From: Pandoraea capi
GTDB taxonomy: Bacteria; Pseudomonadota; Gammaproteobacteria; Burkholderiales; Burkholderiaceae
Direction: 5' to 3'
Assembly: GCF_902459735.1 (NCBI RefSeq)
Contig: NZ_CABPRV010000009.1
Coordinates: 1 to 64,000 of the forward strand
DNA: 64,000 nt
The translations under genes and the position numbers were made by a program. How positions within the stretch are numbered: position 1 is the first letter of the stretch; each line of letters opens with the position of its first letter. Below, piece by piece: positions 12,508-33,657 of the stretch. Below the pieces are notes generated by a model, which was given only the letters and a program-made list of their open reading frames with translations, ran no database searches and was not told where the DNA came from.

Positions 12508-13220
12508 TCCAGAACCCGCATCTCCAACTGGACGGCATCCGCGCGGTGCTGATCGACCTCGACGGCACGCTCGTCGATACGGCAGGCGACTTCGGTGTGG
12601 CGTTGAACGCCATGCTGGCCGACCTCGGCACCGAGCCCGTGCCGGTCGAGCGCCTGATGACGTTCGTGGGCAAGGGCACCGCCAATCTGGTGCGCAAGAC
12701 GCTGGCCGAGCGCTTCCCCGAAAGCGAGATCGACGCGCTATTCGATCGCGCGCAGGACAAGTACGAAGCCGTCTACACATCGGTCAATGGCGAGAACACG
12801 GCGCTCTACCCGGAAGTGCGCGAGGGCCTCGCCGCCTTGCGTGAAGCGGGCCTGCCGGTCGCGTGCATCACCAACAAGCAGCATCGCTTCGCCGTGGCAT
12901 TGCTCGAACACTACGGTCTCACCGATCAGTTCGATCTGGTGTACGGCGGCGATTCGTGGCCGAAGCGCAAGCCTGACCCGATGCCGCTCGTCAAAGCCTG
13001 CGAAGCGTTCGGCGTGACGCCGGCGCAAACGGTGCTCGTCGGCGACTCGGGCAACGACGCGCAGGCCGCCCGCGCCGCGGGCTGCCGCTCGCTCACCGTG
13101 CCCTACGGCTACAACCATGGCGAATCTATACAAACGATCGACACGGATGGTATAGTCGCCTCAATTCTGGGCGCTGCCCGGGCGATCCTGCCCAAGGCGA
13201 CGTCCGCACTGGCGAACTGA
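12504..13220 (+). CDS. gph: Phosphoglycolate phosphatase
   Basis: A 238-residue HAD-superfamily hydrolase that removes phosphate from 2-phosphoglycolate, a product of DNA repair and oxygenation chemistry. The nucleophile motif DLDGTLVDT is near residue 20, followed by an alpha-helical cap ([14 protein letters not shown]). Motif II threonine lies in VACITNK, the motif III lysine in KRKPDPMPL and the acidic pair in [11 protein letters not shown]. The last 35 codons include an AT-rich run with two ATA codons, unusual for this chromosome, which may hold a promoter for the downstream trp leader. rpe-gph-trpE is a conserved Burkholderiaceae order. Confidence 0.95.
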
Positions 13221-13609
13221 ATTCGCCGTCTTCCACACTGCATTCAAGCGCAATGTTCCTGAACAAGAAACGGAGTCTTAGCGTGATCGACCGGGGGGCC
13301 TGGCCCTGGCGACGCTGGTCCTGCTGAACCCTTCCCAAAGGGGTGGCCGGGACCGCTGGAGTTCGTCTTCAGCAACCCGTTTCTTGCATCGTTGTTGTTC
13401 CCAAGAAGTCATATATCGGCGCGTCGTCTCGTACGGCGTGCGGATTCGTCGAGACGCAGGGTCGCCGTCGCCTCCGGGTGCGCGCGCTCGCTGCGGCCCG
13501 ACGTGGGTCAGCACATCCACCCCCGACATGACTCAGGTATTCTCAACGCCAATCCACGCCGATTCTGCGGGACCGCCCGCCGGCAACCAACTTGCAGGCA
13601 GAGTGCAAC
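13221..13609 (+). promoter_or_regulatory. trpE leader region with attenuator
   Basis: This 389-bp gap contains a Trp-codon leader peptide (13283-13327) and mutually exclusive RNA pairings. GGTCC (13317-13321, overlapping the third Trp codon) can pair with GGACC (13350-13354). Alternatively, GGG...GCTG (13349-13358) can pair with CAGC...CCC (13370-13378), followed by U-rich GTTTCTTGC. The second pairing would be the terminator and the first the antiterminator, as in ribosome-mediated trp attenuation. I see nothing clear in the remaining 200 bp before trpE. Confidence 0.7.
13283..13327 (+). CDS. trpL: trp operon leader peptide TrpL (upstream of trpE)
   Basis: A 14-codon GTG-started frame with sequence M-I-D-R-G-A-W-P-W-R-R-W-S-C holds three Trp codons among six consecutive residues (7, 9 and 12). 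A GGAG ribosome site lies seven bases upstream. Trp makes up about 1% of average proteins, so this density, immediately downstream of gph and upstream of trpE, is characteristic of an attenuation leader. Ribosome stalling at the Trp codons when charged tRNA-Trp is scarce would favour the antiterminator and raise trpE expression. Confidence 0.8.
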   Translation: MIDRGAWPWRRWSC

Positions 13610-15115
13610 ATGACCGAACTCGAATTCAAATCGCTGGCCAACCAAGGCTTTAACCGCATTCCGCTGATCGCAGAAGCCTTTGCCGATCTCGACACGCCGC
13701 TCTCGCTCTATCTGAAGCTCGCGCTGGGCGACCGCCGTGGGGCCAACACCTTCCTGCTCGAATCCGTCGTCGGCGGGGAACGCTTCGGCCGCTACTCGTT
13801 CATCGGCCTCTCGGCCCACACGCTGCTGCGCAGCTTCGGCCCGAAGACCGAAGTTGTGCGCGACGGCACCGTCGTCGAGACACACGAAGGCGACCCGCTC
13901 GAATTCATCACCGCGTTCCAGGCGCGTTTCAAGGTCGCACTGCGCCCGGGCATGCCGCGTTTCTGCGGCGGTCTCGCCGGCTACTTCGGCTACGACGCCG
14001 TGCGTTACATCGAGAAGAAGCTCGCGCACACCACGCCGCGCGACGATCTGAACCTGCCGGACATCCAGTTGCTGCTCACGGAAGAACTCGCCGTGATCGA
14101 CAACCTGACCGGCAAGCTCTACCTCATCATCTACGCCGACCCCACGCAGCCGGAAGCCTATTCGAAGGCGCGCCTGCGTCTGCGCGAACTGCGCGCCCGC
14201 CTGAAAGCACCGGTCGACGCCCCGGTCACCTCGGGCAGCGTGCGCACCGAGACCTTCCGCGAATTTGCCAAGCCGGACTATCTGGCTGCCGTCGCCAAGG
14301 CCAAGGAAGCCATCGAGGCCGGCGAACTGATGCAGGTGCAGGTCGGCCAGCGTCTCATCAAGCCGTATCGCGACGCCCCGCTCTCGCTCTACCGCGCGCT
14401 GCGCTCGCTCAATCCGTCGCCGTACATGTACTTCTACAATTTCGGCGATTTCCAGGTCGTGGGCGCGTCGCCGGAGATCCTCGTGCGTCAGGAGCGTCGT
14501 CAGACGCCGGACGGCGAGCATGAAATCGTGACGATTCGTCCGCTGGCAGGTACGCGTCCGCGCGGCGCCACGCCAGAGCGCGACGCAGAGCTGGCGAAGG
14601 AATTGCTTGGCGATCCGAAGGAAATTGCCGAGCACGTGATGCTGATCGATCTGGCGCGCAACGACGTGGGCCGCATCGCACAGACCGGCACCGTCGAAGT
14701 CACCGACAAGATGATCATCGAGAAGTACTCGCACGTGCAGCACATCGTCAGCTCGGTCGAAGGTCGCCTGCAACCCGGCCTGTCGAACATCGACGTGCTG
14801 CGTGCCACCTTCCCGGCCGGCACGCTCACCGGCGCACCGAAGGTTCGCGCCATGGAGCTGATCGACGAACTCGAACCGGTCAAGCGCGGCCTGTACGGCG
14901 GCGCCGTCGGTTATCTCTCGTTCGGTGGGGAAATGGACGTGGCCATCGCGATTCGCACCGGCGTCGTGAAGGACGGCAACCTCTACGTGCAAGCCGCTGC
15001 CGGTATCGTTGCCGACTCGGTGCCCGAATCCGAATGGCAAGAGACGGAAAACAAGGCCCGCGCCGTGCTGCGCGCCGCCGAACAGGTGCAGGACGGACTC
15101 GATGCCGAGTACTGA
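13610..15115 (+). CDS. trpE: Anthranilate synthase component I
   Basis: A 501-residue chorismate-binding enzyme that, with the TrpG amidotransferase, makes anthranilate for tryptophan synthesis. The N-terminal regulatory domain includes LLESVVGGERFGRYSFIG, close to the known Trp feedback site. The catalytic half has RPLAGTRPRG (about residue 311), LIDLARNDVGRIA, FPAGTLTGAPKVRAMELID and the GGAVGYLSF motif. The frame has an upstream in-frame ATG, but the family N-terminus MTELEF gives the start at 13610. It is alone: trpG, trpD and trpC lie about 16 kb downstream, whereas in many Burkholderiaceae they follow trpE directly. Confidence 0.96.
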   Translation: MTELEFKSLANQGFNRIPLIAEAFADLDTPLSLYLKLALGDRRGANTFLLESVVGGERFGRYSFIGLSAHTLLRSFGPKTEVVRDGTVVETHEGDPLEFITAFQARFKVALRPGMPRFCGGLAGYFGYDAVRYIEKKLAHTTPRDDLNLPDIQLLLTEELAVIDNLTGKLYLIIYADPTQPEAYSKARLRLRELRARLKAPVDAPVTSGSVRTETFREFAKPDYLAAVAKAKEAIEAGELMQVQVGQRLIKPYRDAPLSLYRALRSLNPSPYMYFYNFGDFQVVGASPEILVRQERRQTPDGEHEIVTIRPLAGTRPRGATPERDAELAKELLGDPKEIAEHVMLIDLARNDVGRIAQTGTVEVTDKMIIEKYSHVQHIVSSVEGRLQPGLSNIDVLRATFPAGTLTGAPKVRAMELIDELEPVKRGLYGGAVGYLSFGGEMDVAIAIRTGVVKDGNLYVQAAAGIVADSVPESEWQETENKARAVLRAAEQVQDGLDAEY

Positions 15116-29793: not shown

Positions 29794-30627
29794 ATGTCGG
29801 TTCGCAAGACTCTCGCTTTCATTGCCGGCCCCTCGCTTGCCGGACTCATCGCGCTCGGCTTCCCGACGACCGGCATGTCGGCCGATACAGCCGCTGCCGC
29901 CCCCGCTGCGACAGTCGCCACGCCCGGCGCAATGCCGAAGCCCGCCATATTGCAGGCGCTGGAGCGCGAGGGCGTGACAGCGCTGCAACCGTTCGATACG
30001 GGAGTCAAGGACCTGAGCGGCTTCGCGGGCCTTGCCGGTCAGCAGCCCATGGCCGTCTATTTGCTCCCGGACGGCAACGGCATCGTCGGCACCCGCATCG
30101 GCGCAGACGCCAGGCCGCTGGACGTCGAACGGGTCACGAAGCTCATCGAAAAGCCGCTGGGCGACGCGGTCTGGTCGAAGCTCTCGTCGTCTCACTGGGT
30201 GCAGGACGGCAAGAAGGACGCGCCGCGCATCGTCTACACGTTCAGCGACCCGAACTGCCCCTACTGCAACCGCTTCTGGGAGTCGGCACGTCCGTGGGTC
30301 GACGCAGGCAAAGTGCAGTTGAGGCACGTGCTCGTGGGCGTGATCAAGGCGGATAGCGTGACGAAGGCGGCGGCCATTTTCGGTGCACCGAATCCGTCGG
30401 CGGCACTCACGCAGAACGAGCAGAAATTCAGGCAAGGCGGGATCAAACCGGCTCGCGATGTCACGAAAGCCATCGCCCAGAAGCTGGAGGCCAATCAGAG
30501 GCTCATGGCCGAACTCGGTTTCCGTGGCACGCCCGGTATCGTCTATCGCAACGACAAGGGGATCGTGGAACGCGCCAACGGCATGCCGCCGCCCGACGCG
30601 CTCACCACCGTTCTCGGCGCGCGCTGA
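29794..30627 (+). CDS. dsbG: Thiol:disulfide interchange protein DsbG
   Basis: A 277-residue periplasmic protein with a cleavable signal peptide (SLAGLIALGFPTTGMSA), an N-terminal dimerisation domain (about residues 40-125) and a thioredoxin domain with C155-P-Y-C158 in FSDPNCPYCNRFW and the FRGTPGIVY cis-proline loop. DsbG-type proteins keep single cysteines reduced or isomerise disulfides, using DsbD electrons; dsbD and the TlpA fusion immediately upstream fit this. A shorter DsbC-like protein is encoded at 45410-46171, so the strain has at least two such isomerases. Confidence 0.9.
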   Translation: MSVRKTLAFIAGPSLAGLIALGFPTTGMSADTAAAAPAATVATPGAMPKPAILQALEREGVTALQPFDTGVKDLSGFAGLAGQQPMAVYLLPDGNGIVGTRIGADARPLDVERVTKLIEKPLGDAVWSKLSSSHWVQDGKKDAPRIVYTFSDPNCPYCNRFWESARPWVDAGKVQLRHVLVGVIKADSVTKAAAIFGAPNPSAALTQNEQKFRQGGIKPARDVTKAIAQKLEANQRLMAELGFRGTPGIVYRNDKGIVERANGMPPPDALTTVLGAR

Positions 30628-31040
30628 GAACGCACCGAGACGGTCCTGCGGCGGCCCATCGGAGGTCGCCCAGAAGCCTCGCGTCGGTCGGGCGACGTAG
30701 CAGAATCGTCGAACGATCGACGCCGTCAGGCGCAAATTCTTGCAGAAAACGCGCGGATGACGCATGAAACGCGTTGAATGGCCGCTTTTTGCGACACCCG
30801 CCCACGACCCGGCGCAGATGCTGCTACAATCGCCTCACTATGAAGTCGCATCAGTCGTCCTCCCTCCTCTGGTCGCCCCTGACCGCTGCCCTGCGCTGGT
30901 GGCGGTAACCCGCCACGTCTATCTCATCCCCATAGCGCCCTCCCCCGCGGACCGCGAAGTCAATGTGGGGGCACGCTCAGGGGACACTCGCAAATTCCAC
31001 GCGTTCGACAATCTTTGTCACCAGACGAACAGGGACCATC
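30628..31040 (+). promoter_or_regulatory. trpGDC leader region with attenuator-like structure
   Basis: This 413-bp gap contains TACAAT (30825-30830, candidate -10), the Trp-rich leader at 30840-30908, and RNA structure. A 7-bp hairpin GTGGCGG/CCGCCAC (30899-30916) covers the two adjacent Trp codons and the stop. A longer hairpin (30928-30983) pairs CCCC, AGCG and CCCCC with GGGGG, CGCT and GGGG. I see no U-tract after the second hairpin, so it may act by transcript cleavage, RBS access or Rho rather than as a simple terminator. Confidence 0.65.
30840..30908 (+). CDS. trpL: trp leader peptide TrpL (upstream of trpGDC)
   Basis: A 22-codon ATG-started frame, M-K-S-H-Q-S-S-S-L-L-W-S-P-L-T-A-A-L-R-W-W-R then TAA, has three Trp codons, two of them adjacent immediately before the stop. 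The ending R-W-W-R is typical of known trp leader peptides. It sits about 130 bp before trpG and directly upstream of a hairpin that includes its Trp codons. It differs in sequence from the trpE leader at 13283-13327. Its Shine-Dalgarno is weak, which lowers certainty slightly. Confidence 0.78.
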   Translation: MKSHQSSSLLWSPLTAALRWWR

Positions 31041-31628
31041 ATGCTGCTGATGATCGACAACTACGACTCGTTTACCTACAACATCGTCCAGTACTTCGGT
31101 GAGCTGGGCGAAGACGTACGGGTCTTCCGCAACGACGAAATCACGCTCGACGACATCGCCGGGCTTGCCCCTGAACGCATTTGTCTCTCCCCCGGCCCGA
31201 GCTGCCCGGTCAATGCGGGCATCACCCTCGACGTGCTCAAGCGCTTCGCCGGCGAGATCCCGATTCTTGGCGTGTGCCTCGGCCATCAGGCCATCGGCGA
31301 AGCCTTCGGCGGGAATGTCGTTCGGGCGCAGCAGATCATGCACGGCAAGGTGAGCGAGATCGAAACCACGCAACAGGGCGTATTCGCGAACCTGCCCAAG
31401 CGCTTCACCGTCACCCGGTACCACTCGCTCGCCATCGAGCGCGCGTCGCTGCCCGACTGCCTCGAAGTCACCGCCTGGACGGACGACGGCGAGATCATGG
31501 GCGTGCGCCACAAGACGCTCGACGTCGAAGGCGTGCAATTCCACCCCGAGTCGATTCTGTCGGAGCATGGCCACGCCGTGCTGCGCAACTTCCTGCAAGC
31601 TGCGCCGCGCAACGCCATCGCTGCCTGA
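31041..31628 (+). CDS. trpG: Anthranilate synthase component II (glutamine amidotransferase)
   Basis: A 195-residue class-I amidotransferase that supplies ammonia from glutamine to TrpE. It shows the N-terminal [14 protein letters not shown], the oxyanion segment [11 protein letters not shown], the catalytic cysteine in [11 protein letters not shown] (about residue 79) and the His-Glu pair in [10 protein letters not shown] (about residues 169-171). Start ATG 31041 follows AGGGA. In some bacteria the same subunit also serves p-aminobenzoate synthesis (PabA), which its separate promoter here would allow. It leads the trpG-trpD-trpC unit. Confidence 0.95.
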
Positions 31629-31707: not shown

Positions 31708-32736
31708 ATGATTACCCCGCAAGAAGCGCTTCAGCGCACCATCGAACACCGCGAAATCTTCCACGACGAGATGCTGCATCTGATGCGTCTCATCATGAAG
31801 GGCGAGATCTCGCCGGTCATGTCGGCCGCCATCATCACCGGCCTGCGCGTGAAGAAGGAAACCATCGGCGAGATCGCCGCTGCCGCGCAGGTCATGCGCG
31901 AGTTCGCCAATCATGTCGATGCGCCGTCGGACGAGCATTTCGTCGACATCGTGGGCACCGGCGGCGATGTGTCGCACACGTTCAACATCTCCACGGCATC
32001 GATGTTCGTTGCCGCCGGCGCAGGCGCGAAGGTCGCCAAGCACGGCAATCGCGGCGTCAGCTCGAAGTCCGGCAGTGCAGACGTGCTTGAAGCGCTCGGC
32101 GTGAACATCATGCTCAACCCCGAGCAGGTTGCGCAGTGTCTGGGCGAGGTCGGCATCGGCTTCATGTTCGCCCCGAATCATCATCCGGCCATGAAGAACG
32201 TCGCCGCCATCCGCAAAGAGATGGGCGTGCGCACGATCTTCAACATTCTCGGGCCGCTCACCAACCCGGCGGGCGCACCGAATCAGCTCATGGGGGTGTT
32301 CCACCCGGATCTGGTCGGGATTCAGGTGCGCGTGATGGAGCGTCTCGGCGCGGAACACGTGCTCGTCGTCTACGGCAAAGATGGCATGGACGAAGTCTCG
32401 CTCGGCGCCGCCACGCTTGTCGGCGAACTGAAGGACGGCAAGGTCACGGAGTATGAGATTCACCCCGAGGACTTCGGCTTGCAGATGGTCAGCAACCGCA
32501 GCCTGAAGGTCGGCAGCGCGGAAGAATCGAAGACGATGCTCATCGAGGCGCTCGACAATACGCCGGGCGTCGCGCGCGAGATCGTCACGCTCAATGCCGG
32601 TACCGCGCTGTATGCGGCCAACCGTGCAGCGACGATCGGCGACGGCATCAAGATGGCGCGCGAGTCTATCGCGAGCGGTGCGGCGCGCGACAAGCTCCAC
32701 GAATTCGTCACATTCACGCAACGCTTCAAGGCGTAA
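31708..32736 (+). CDS. trpD: Anthranilate phosphoribosyltransferase
   Basis: A 342-residue homodimeric enzyme joining anthranilate to PRPP. Landmarks are the GTGGD motif ([16 protein letters not shown], about residues 79-94), [21 protein letters not shown] (about 111-131), and the acidic metal-binding pair in GMDEVSLGA (Asp and Glu, about 229-230). The AGAGGAGAAG ribosome site gives a confident ATG. It follows trpG by 79 bp and precedes trpC. Confidence 0.96.
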
Positions 32737-32844: not shown

Positions 32845-33657
32845 ATGTCTACCGTTCTCGACAAGATCCTGGCCGTGAAGGCCGAAGAAGTCGCCGCCGC
32901 CAGGCGCGTGCGCGACCTCGCAAGTCTGCGCCGCGACGCCGAAGCGACCGTTGGCGACAGCGCACTTCGCACGCGCGACTTCGTGGGCGCCCTGCGCACG
33001 AAGATCGATGGCGGCCTGTCCGGCGTGATCGCCGAAATCAAGAAGGCCAGCCCGTCCAAGGGCGTGATTCGCGAGAACTTCGTGCCGCCGCAGATCGCCG
33101 AGTCGTATCAGCAAGGTGGCGCGGCCTGCCTGTCGGTGTTGACCGACGTCCAGTTCTTTCAGGGCTCGGCAGAGTATCTGAAAGCGGCGCGCGCGGCCTG
33201 CGATCTGCCGGTGCTGCGCAAGGACTTCATGATCGACGCGTATCAGGTCTATGAAGCCCGCGACATGGGCGCCGATTGCATTTTGCTGATCGCCGCCGCG
33301 CTGGAGCTTTCGCAGATGCGCGATCTCGAAGCGCTCGCGCACGAGCTCGGCATGGCGGTGCTCGTCGAAGTCCATAACGGTCAGGAACTGGATGCCGGTC
33401 TGGAACTGCGCACACCGCTGCTGGGCATCAACAATCGCAACCTGCACAACTTCGAAGTCACGCTCGACACCACCCTCGGCCTGCTCAAGCACATTCCGCA
33501 GGATCGTCTGGTCGTGACGGAGTCGGGTATCCTGTCGCGTGACGACGTGGCGCGCATGCGCGCAGCCAACGTCAACGCCTTTCTCGTCGGCGAAGCCTTC
33601 ATGCGCGCGCCCGAGCCGGGCGATGCGCTCGCCACGCTGTTCGACATGCCCCGCTGA
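32845..33657 (+). CDS. trpC: Indole-3-glycerol phosphate synthase
   Basis: A 270-residue TIM-barrel enzyme that cyclises carboxyphenylaminodeoxyribulose phosphate. Catalytic residues are visible in [12 protein letters not shown] (Glu and Lys, about residues 62-68), [14 protein letters not shown] (Lys, about 130), a VLVEVHN Glu, GINNRNL and VTESGI. Length and order are normal; no fused TrpF is present. The frame has an upstream ATG, but the family N-terminus MSTVLDKIL sets the start at 32845. It ends the trpGDC block. Confidence 0.96.

What the first reader, a model, noticed from the sequence alone, without database searches (positions are those of the whole stretch)
30840..30983. Second, different Trp-rich leader upstream of trpGDC
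A 22-codon frame ending R-W-W-R-stop lies 130 bp before trpG. A 7-bp hairpin covers its tandem Trp codons and a large hairpin follows. It shares no evident sequence with the trpE leader, so both halves of the pathway seem to be controlled by attenuation separately. The absence of a U-tract suggests that the downstream hairpin does not work as a simple intrinsic terminator.
Basis: partly seen in the sequence, partly recalled or inferred. Interest (0 to 1): 0.72.

Follow-up and report, generated by a model that had tools for sequence, protein, structure and literature searches.

The report
Own tryptophan leader for severed trpGDC
In Pandoraea bacteria, half of the tryptophan-making gene set has been cut off from its first gene and carries its own small tryptophan-rich "sensor" reading frame, and something similar seems to have happened separately in related bacteria.

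Summary
In detail: a 22-codon frame (30840-30908, ending RWWR), a 7-bp hairpin on its last Trp codon with the stop in the loop, and a large hairpin (30928-30983) without U-tract. The frame is under selection: intact with the same three Trp codons in 26 of 32 Pandoraea genomes. Five early-branching species have trpE 5-88 bp from trpG and no leader; one carries an unrelated leader. In 60 other Burkholderiaceae genomes, 6 of 6 with trpE away from trpG have a Trp-ended leader before trpG, against 1 of 54 with trpE near. Three leader families show no sequence similarity to each other; the six stand for about two origins.

Most likely this is Trp-codon-dependent, ribosome-mediated control of trpGDC; no expression data exist here. 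The classical terminator/antiterminator version is not supported: no U-tract, and the large hairpin persists in modelled stalled states. Rho acting on the C-rich stretch after the stop codon is an open alternative. Separate attenuation of trpE and trpGDC is already reported for Pseudomonas putida. New here are the leaders, their tie to the operon split within Burkholderiaceae, and peptide-level constraint in one family.

The parts
30822..30830 (+). extended -10 promoter element TGCTACAAT, 9 nt before the leader ATG; predicted transcript start about 30837-30840
   Evidence: TGCTACAAT lies 9 or 10 nt before the leader ATG in 26 of 26 type-A genomes. TGNTANAAT ending 5-12 nt before an ATG occurs at 1 of 1866 ATGs of the window, and that one is this leader's ATG. 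The start site itself is inferred.
30840..30908 (+). leader ORF, 22 codons, MKSHQSSSLLWSPLTAALRWWR-stop, Trp at 11, 20, 21
30899..30916 (+). stop-codon-loop hairpin (30899-30905 with 30910-30916), analogous to a 1:2 pause hairpin
   Evidence: 7 of 7 pairs invariant in 25 distinct sequences, so no covariation can be seen
30907..30948 (+). C-rich, G-poor stretch that begins within the stop codon (23 C, 5 G in 42 nt), rut-like in composition
   Evidence: 0.1% of the 42-nt windows of the 64-kb window, both strands, are at least as C-over-G
30928..30983 (+). large GC-rich hairpin without U-tract
   Evidence: -30.7 kcal/mol; all 14 stem pairs kept in 25 of 25 distinct sequences, 2 of the 14 vary, by G-C to G-U only
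31031..31035 (+). trpG Shine-Dalgarno (AGGGA)
   Evidence: sequence
31041..31628 (+). trpG (anthranilate synthase component II)
31708..32736 (+). trpD, second gene of the controlled operon (name from position and operon knowledge)
   Evidence: ORF; used as TrpD; name not tested by a family search
32845..33657 (+). trpC, third gene of the controlled operon (ORF listed from 32758; the ATG at 32845 is my choice of start; name from position)
   Evidence: name not tested by a family search
13253..13327 (+). separate trpE leader ORF MFLNKKRSLSVIDRGAWPWRRWSC-stop, shared with other Burkholderiaceae
13610..15115 (+). trpE, 15.9 kb upstream of trpG

Best explanation
The stretch is a tryptophan-codon leader that controls trpGDC separately from trpE. 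A transcript starts at or 3-4 nt before the leader AUG (inferred from the promoter), so the leader is translated as a nearly leaderless mRNA. When charged tRNA-Trp is plentiful the ribosome runs through W11, W20 and W21 to the stop codon and most transcripts end, or fail to express trpG, before trpG. When it is scarce, the ribosome stalls on the Trp codons, holds open the hairpin whose 5' arm contains W21 and whose loop contains the stop codon, and transcription continues into trpGDC. Shown here: the ORF, its conservation, the conserved potential for the hairpins, and the link to separation from trpE within Burkholderiaceae. Inferred: translation, stalling, Trp response. Unresolved: how transcription stops; the first two rivals below are the two main versions of this explanation (Rho at the C-rich stretch after the stop codon, or an unusual U-less terminator hairpin). 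The leader belongs to the core of the genus Pandoraea and would replace the co-control lost when trpE and trpG were separated.
For: Frame, start, stop and all three Trp codons intact in 26 of 32 Pandoraea genomes. Degenerate codons with invariant amino acid: 11 of 11 codon-invariant in the leader against 35 of 150 in trpG of the same genomes. Chance of such an ORF small. Promoter at fixed distance in 26 of 26. The 5 early-branching Pandoraea have trpE 5-88 bp from trpG and no leader; the split between them and the other Pandoraea has 99% support (31 of the 32 Pandoraea). Association outside the genus: with one criterion for all 60 genomes, a Trp-ended ATG frame before trpG in 6 of 6 with trpE apart, 1 of 5 with a gap of 227-603 bp and 0 of 49 with a gap up to 200 bp. 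Type B lies before trpG in 10 of 10 genomes that have it, with trpE 1.7-28 kb away in 9 and on another contig in 1. Families A, B and C show no sequence similarity to each other (P 0.59-0.61). The stop codon lies in a hairpin loop in 18 of 19 leader loci tested (5 of 6 families) against 123 of 524 control frames of the window.
Against: No U-tract; no terminator-like site. No base pair with changes on both sides among the 25 distinct type-A sequences, so the hairpins rest on conservation alone. With the ribosome modelled at W20 or W21 the large hairpin still forms (mean probability 0.86-0.90), so no antiterminator wins; a possible 9-bp helix between the post-stop segment and the hairpin's 3' arm (-13.0 kcal/mol, one bulge) is weaker than the hairpin (-30.7) and loses a pair in 4 of 26 genomes. 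G013 and G016 keep the leader although trpE abuts (about 370 bp), so separation is not required for keeping it. Outside Burkholderiaceae the association is not supported: an ORF with two Trp among its last nine residues was found in 5 of 24 loci with trpE apart, but also in 8 of 43 with trpE adjacent (those 8 lie inside trpE), with 0.8 and 1.9 expected from shuffles. The six 'apart' genomes represent about two leader origins. No expression data.
Confidence: 0.72

Rival explanations
1. Rho-dependent version. After a completed leader peptide, the C-rich, G-poor RNA directly behind the stop codon is free for Rho, which terminates before trpG. A ribosome held on W20/W21, or the large hairpin folding over the C-rich strand, keeps Rho off. 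The large hairpin would then protect, not terminate.
For: 42-nt stretch beginning in the stop codon with 23 C and 5 G; 0.1% of all 42-nt windows of the 64-kb window (both strands) are as extreme; C minus G of 17-20 at the same place in 26 of 26 type-A genomes. No terminator-like T-run between leader and trpG. In the fold model the large hairpin is favoured with a ribosome at W11 (0.86-0.94) over the free RNA (0.55-0.64).
Against: The same C-rich strand is the 5' arm of the hairpin, which explains its composition without Rho. The stretch was picked as the best of about 90 windows. In 10 type-B leaders the best window reaches only the top 0.1-8% per window, and in 4 type-C leaders it lies 120-178 nt behind the stop codon. 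A ribosome at W21 covers only the first few bases of the stretch.
Confidence: 0.35
2. Classical intrinsic version: hairpin 1:2 with the Trp codons, a 2:3 antiterminator between CCCGCCACGU and AUGUGGGGG, and the large hairpin as a terminator that works without a U-tract.
For: Right order of parts; a 9-bp helix with one bulge is possible (-13.0 kcal/mol); strong hairpin (-30.7).
Against: No U-tract; the antiterminator loses against the hairpin in the model; one of its pairs is broken in 4 of 26 genomes.
Confidence: 0.3
3. Nascent-peptide arrest: the leader peptide itself, not only slow Trp codons, stalls the ribosome (as TnaC does, recalled), so it senses Trp or another signal through the peptide exit tunnel.
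For: In the type-B trpG leader the residues RFPSVLL(F/L)FGWR are kept across 5 genera while synonymous sites change (codons 6-17: pS 0.44, pN 0.018, ratio 0.04) with a single Trp codon; that is peptide-level constraint. Type A codons 9-22 ratio 0.25.
Against: In type A, the leader of this window, synonymous sites are nearly frozen too (pS 0.057), so RNA and peptide constraint cannot be told apart; type A has three Trp codons with a tandem pair, as a codon counter would. The trpE leader peptide, a presumed ordinary attenuator, is also conserved (ratio 0.20).
Confidence: 0.15
4. Translational control: pyrimidine-rich leader codons pair with the trpG Shine-Dalgarno and a ribosome stalled at W11 releases it.
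For: In the minimum-free-energy fold of the free leader the early ORF pairs with the trpG start region; Shine-Dalgarno unpaired 0.15 free, 0.27 with a ribosome at W11.
Against: Small change, and 0.13-0.14 at W20/W21. The longest perfect ORF-to-hairpin complement (7 nt) is expected in 25% of shuffles.
Confidence: 0.08
5. The ORF is a chance frame in a conserved promoter region.
For: The region upstream of the ORF also holds conserved motifs.
Against: Shuffle odds of 0.13% or less; no indel in the frame in 26 genomes while indels occur on both sides; C-terminal half conserved and N-terminal half drifting; same position occupied by other Trp-ended frames in other genera.
Confidence: 0.03

Closest known systems
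trpE and trpGDC attenuators of Pseudomonas putida (Olekhnovich and Gussin 2001; only the title seen, in the reference list of PMC8297930; paper not held)
   Same: By its title, the trpE and trpGDC operons are each regulated by attenuation. A supporting-figure legend of PMC8297930 (passage read) reports premature 3' ends in the P. aeruginosa trpGDC leader beside a potential uORF
   Different: No Pseudomonas sequence was compared here. The type-A leader was found only in Pandoraea (1 of 300 order genomes, the window's own, strict filters) and lacks a U-tract
Escherichia coli trp leader (trpL), recalled
   Same: Short peptide with tandem Trp codons near the stop, hairpin that holds Trp codons with the stop codon in its loop, second hairpin downstream
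   Different: No U-tract, no convincing antiterminator, probably a nearly leaderless start, no Rfam hit
trpL / rnTrpL / peTrpL of Sinorhizobium meliloti (PMC7298713, passages read)
   Same: Small leader whose RNA starts at the ATG of the leader ORF; Trp codons close to the stop
   Different: Controls trpE(G); terminates to a known sRNA. No sequence compared. The start site in Pandoraea is only predicted
tnaC leader of the tna operon (recalled)
   Same: Candidate Rho site directly behind the leader stop codon
   Different: tnaC serves Trp degradation and responds to high Trp

Membership tests
Classical ribosome-mediated trp attenuator (E. coli type) | Short ORF with clustered Trp codons ahead of Trp biosynthesis genes | tested here: met
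   W11, W20, W21 in 22 codons, 132 nt before trpG, conserved in 26 genomes
Classical ribosome-mediated trp attenuator (E. coli type) | Hairpin 1:2 overlapping the Trp codons | tested here: met
   30899-30905 with 30910-30916, invariant; predicted, no covariation
Classical ribosome-mediated trp attenuator (E. coli type) | Antiterminator 2:3 that excludes the terminator when the ribosome stalls | tested here: inconclusive
   Possible helix of -13.0 kcal/mol, but the large hairpin stays at 0.86-0.90 in modelled stalled states
Classical ribosome-mediated trp attenuator (E. coli type) | Intrinsic terminator hairpin with U-tract | tested here: not met
   0 terminator-like sites in 30600-31100; no T-run after the hairpin in the 26 aligned genomes. 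The trpE leader region 13150-13650 also scored 0 by the same scan, although it has a TTTCTT after its last hairpin, so the scan is strict
Classical ribosome-mediated trp attenuator (E. coli type) | Trp-dependent premature termination | not testable with these tools
   no expression data
Rfam-described leader RNA | Match to a curated covariance model | tested here: not met
   0 matches at gathering score in 64 kb; at E up to 10 in 30700-31100 one unrelated match on the other strand, E 7.6
Leaderless trpL as in Sinorhizobium | Transcript begins at the leader AUG | tested here: inconclusive
   Extended -10 fixed 9-10 nt before the ATG in 26 of 26; start site not mapped
Rho-dependent leader of tnaC type | C-rich, G-poor rut-like RNA next to the leader stop codon | tested here: met
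   30907-30948, 23 C and 5 G; composition only
Rho-dependent leader of tnaC type | Rho dependence and ribosome arrest at the leader end | not testable with these tools
   needs experiment

The most novel reading that the evidence does not exclude
Breaking the trp operon between trpE and trpG repeatedly leads the severed trpGDC to gain its own Trp leader. At least three unrelated leader families (Pandoraea RWWR, the GWR family of several Burkholderiaceae, Cupriavidus RWWRFH) converge on one design: last Trp codon and stop codon tied into one hairpin, a nearly leaderless start in the two families examined for it (A and B), no classical terminator. Some of these leaders (family B clearly under peptide-level constraint) work as nascent-peptide sensors with Rho rather than as simple codon counters.
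Probability: 0.25. Interest if true: 0.85.

Novelty: new variant of a known kind. Interest (0 to 1): 0.6.

Why it matters
Operon break-up should uncouple genes whose products form one enzyme (TrpE and TrpG are the two halves of anthranilate synthase). Here one genus holds the unsplit state, the split state, a state with the leader present though trpE abuts, and a leader swap, so it can show how co-regulation is restored. It makes the question of how new attenuators arise directly testable. The lack of a U-tract makes the locus a good test for Rho-based or peptide-based amino acid attenuation.

Tried and rejected
Long-range pairing CCCCUGA (leader codons 13-15) with UCAGGGG (3' arm of the large hairpin): kept in 25 of 25 distinct sequences, but a 7-nt complement arises in 25% of shuffles, so not claimed.

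Homology of the trpG leader to the trpE leader: rejected. Homology between leader families: the type-A model gave no match at E up to 1 in the type-B, type-C and other leader loci searched with it (L014, L164, L165, L168, L226, L064, L196, L081, L091, L123, L180), only one chance match in the window, E 0.2; pairwise A-B, A-C and B-C scores equal shuffled ones (one representative each).

Covariation support for the hairpins: none obtainable in type A, 0 pairs with changes on both sides. Type B gave 2 of 15 predicted pairs with such changes, too little to build on.

The shared stop-codon-in-loop design is only moderately rare: 123 of 524 control frames of the window have it. Type D (L180) does not have it.

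A first scan for ORFs with two or more Trp missed the type-B leaders, which have one Trp; they were found because one Pandoraea (G004, L014) did not fit. Of the 20 of 398 genomes matched, 10 match the leader and 10 only an unrelated stretch of 26-42 nt upstream of it. In one search frames were looked for only where the gap exceeded 200 bp; one search repeated the scan with one criterion for all 60. The 60 genomes were picked by me from the roughly 150 best rows listed (240 genomes had a match), not at random; two of them (G079, G084) I already knew to carry type B. The 6 'apart' genomes are L177, L186 and L226 (type B or its diverged relative) and L196, L198, L206 (type C), so about two origins, not six.

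Literature: nothing on a trpG leader in Pandoraea, Burkholderia or Cupriavidus was seen in the listings of the searches; the library holds open-licence papers only, so this is no proof of absence.

Full report
What is there. trpE lies at 13610-15115 and trpG at 31041-31628, 15.9 kb apart. Before trpG sits a 22-codon ORF, 30840-30908, MKSHQSSSLLWSPLTAALRWWR. An extended -10 element TGCTACAAT ends 9 nt before the ATG. A 7-bp hairpin (30899-30905 with 30910-30916) carries W21 in its 5' arm and the stop codon in its loop. A large hairpin (30928-30983, -30.7 kcal/mol) follows without any T-run.

It is selected. The ORF is present, unshifted and with W11, W20 and W21 in 26 of the 32 Pandoraea genomes examined (G026 and G003 fetched). 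One further genome (G004) has an unrelated leader and five have none. Among leader codons whose amino acid never changes and which could vary silently, 11 of 11 are invariant, against 35 of 150 in trpG of the same genomes; four-fold site identity is 0.95 in the leader and 0.76 in trpG. The start of trpG is also locally frozen (13 codons other than Met/Trp in the best 14-codon window), so such freezing is not unique to the leader. In the large hairpin the stems vary only by G-C to G-U at 2 of 14 pairs, while about half of the loop columns vary. There is no covariation: the sequences are too alike.

The start. TGCTACAAT lies 9 nt (5 genomes) or 10 nt (21 genomes) before the leader ATG in 26 of 26. 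Such an element (TGNTANAAT ending 5-12 nt before an ATG) occurs at one of 1866 ATGs of the window, and that one is this leader. I infer a transcript that begins 0-4 nt before the AUG, as reported for trpL of Sinorhizobium meliloti (PMC7298713, passages read).

How it arose. Five Pandoraea (G015, G024, G026, G030, G003) have trpE 5-88 bp before trpG and no leader, as do most other Burkholderiaceae seen. The split between these and the leader carriers (with G004) has 99% support in a tree of trpE, trpG and trpD (G030 left out because its trpE was only partly matched). In 23 of the 26 carriers trpE is 6-16 kb away; in one (G017) the two genes lie on different contigs; in G013 and G016 trpE abuts at about 370 bp with promoter and leader in between. 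The tree does not settle whether G013 and G016 are an early in-between state or lost the inserted genes later. In G004 the leader is replaced by MRNSTRFPSVLLFFGWR, whose relatives stand before trpG in four other genera, although its trpE, trpG and trpD group with Pandoraea. That points to a swap of the leader by recombination.

A recurring pattern within the family. For 60 further Burkholderiaceae genomes (chosen by me from the listing) one criterion was applied: an ATG frame of 10-36 codons with Trp in its last seven residues, ending 60-300 nt before trpG. It was met by 6 of 6 genomes with trpE apart, 1 of 5 with a gap of 227-603 bp (L180, MRAEPHLLLPAADAWAWRRPRRH) and 0 of 49 with a gap up to 200 bp. 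A frame with Trp near its end arises in about 6% of shuffles of the window's region. Type B by pattern occurs in 10 of 398 Burkholderiaceae genomes in 5 genera; in all 10 it lies before trpG, and trpE is 1.7-28 kb away in 9 and on another contig in 1. The type-A model finds only the window's own genome among 300 genomes of the order (strict filters).

Outside the family the pattern is not supported: an ORF with two Trp among its last nine residues occurs in 5 of 24 loci with trpE apart, and in 8 of 43 with trpE adjacent, those 8 lying inside trpE. Single candidates remain worth a look: L091 (MTCAPTFTTQWWRFQ, Verticiella, resembling type C), L081 (MAHYSQAIDLRWRRWR) and L123 (...LLPGRWWR).

Shared design. 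In 18 of 19 leader loci (types A, B, C and L091, L081, L123; not L180) the start of the stop codon sits in the loop of a hairpin, against 123 of 524 control frames of the window; in those printed the 5' arm holds or directly follows the last Trp codons. Type B also starts 6-10 nt behind a -10 element: TGNTANAAT in 9 of 10, TAGAAT without the TG spacing in the tenth.

Mechanism. The layout says ribosome position on Trp codons is read out. How transcription stops is open. I modelled the ribosome as an unpaired footprint in 25 distinct sequences. The two parts of the large hairpin form with mean probability 0.55-0.64 in the free RNA, 0.86-0.94 with a ribosome at W11, 0.86-0.90 at W20 or W21 and 0.80-0.82 at the stop. 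A classical attenuator should lose its terminator in the stalled state; this one does not. A possible antiterminator (-13.0 kcal/mol) exists but is weaker. The C-rich stretch behind the stop (30907-30948) is in the top 0.1% of the window for C over G, which makes Rho a real candidate, though it was the best of about 90 windows and also forms the 5' arm of the hairpin. Both readings keep the biological logic: more trpGDC when Trp is scarce.

A surprise beside the question. The type-B leader has one Trp codon, yet RFPSVLL(F/L)FGWR is kept across five genera with free synonymous change (pN/pS 0.04 over codons 6-17; 0.16 over the whole frame; trpE leader 0.20). A plain codon counter needs no fixed peptide. 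This looks like an arrest peptide. Type A cannot be judged in this way, because its silent sites are nearly frozen.

Known and new. By the title of a 2001 paper by Olekhnovich and Gussin, trpE and trpGDC of Pseudomonas putida are each regulated by attenuation (seen in the reference list of PMC8297930; paper not held). Ribosome-mediated attenuation of trp operons is textbook. New, as far as the searches named under Tried and rejected go, are these leaders, their link with the broken operon in Burkholderiaceae, their recurrence with unrelated sequence, and the lack of a canonical terminator. I therefore call it a new variant of a known kind and do not file it as a classical attenuator, because the U-tract was tested and is absent.

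Noticed in passing
L165-L173, L164 (type-B trpG leaders): Leader MR..RFPSVLL(F/L)FGWR with one Trp codon, pN/pS 0.04 over codons 6-17 across five genera: looks like a conserved arrest peptide in front of trpG.
   Followed up: partly
window 13253-13400 and trpE leaders of other Burkholderiaceae: The trpE leader starts at ATG 13253 (24 codons). Its first codons (AACAAGAAACGG, in relatives AAUAAAAAACGG) are complementary to the U-rich tail after the last hairpin (CCGUUUCUUG, in relatives CCGUUUUUU) over about 9-10 nt in many aligned sequences. The start of the leader may pair with the terminator's U-tract; no statistical test was made.
   Followed up: partly
window 30700-30750: Motifs upstream of the trpG leader promoter, GCAGAATCGTCGAACGA and near-palindromic TTCTTGCRAGAA, recur with some changes in the 11 split and unsplit leader carriers printed: a possible operator for a transcription factor.
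   Followed up: no
L014 / L164 (G004): One Pandoraea has the type-B leader of other genera before a Pandoraea trpG, with trpE 28 kb away: leader swap by recombination.
   Followed up: partly
L023, L030 (G013, G016): Leader and promoter sit between abutting trpE and trpG: an in-between state or a later loss of the inserted genes.
   Followed up: partly
L180 (G061): Another leader candidate, MRAEPHLLLPAADAWAWRRPRRH, in a 227-bp gap between trpE and trpG, with a strong hairpin over its Trp codons but the stop codon not in a loop.
   Followed up: partly
window 31053-31094: Codons 5-18 of trpG are almost invariant also at silent sites across the genus (13 codons other than Met/Trp in the best 14-codon window).
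   Followed up: no
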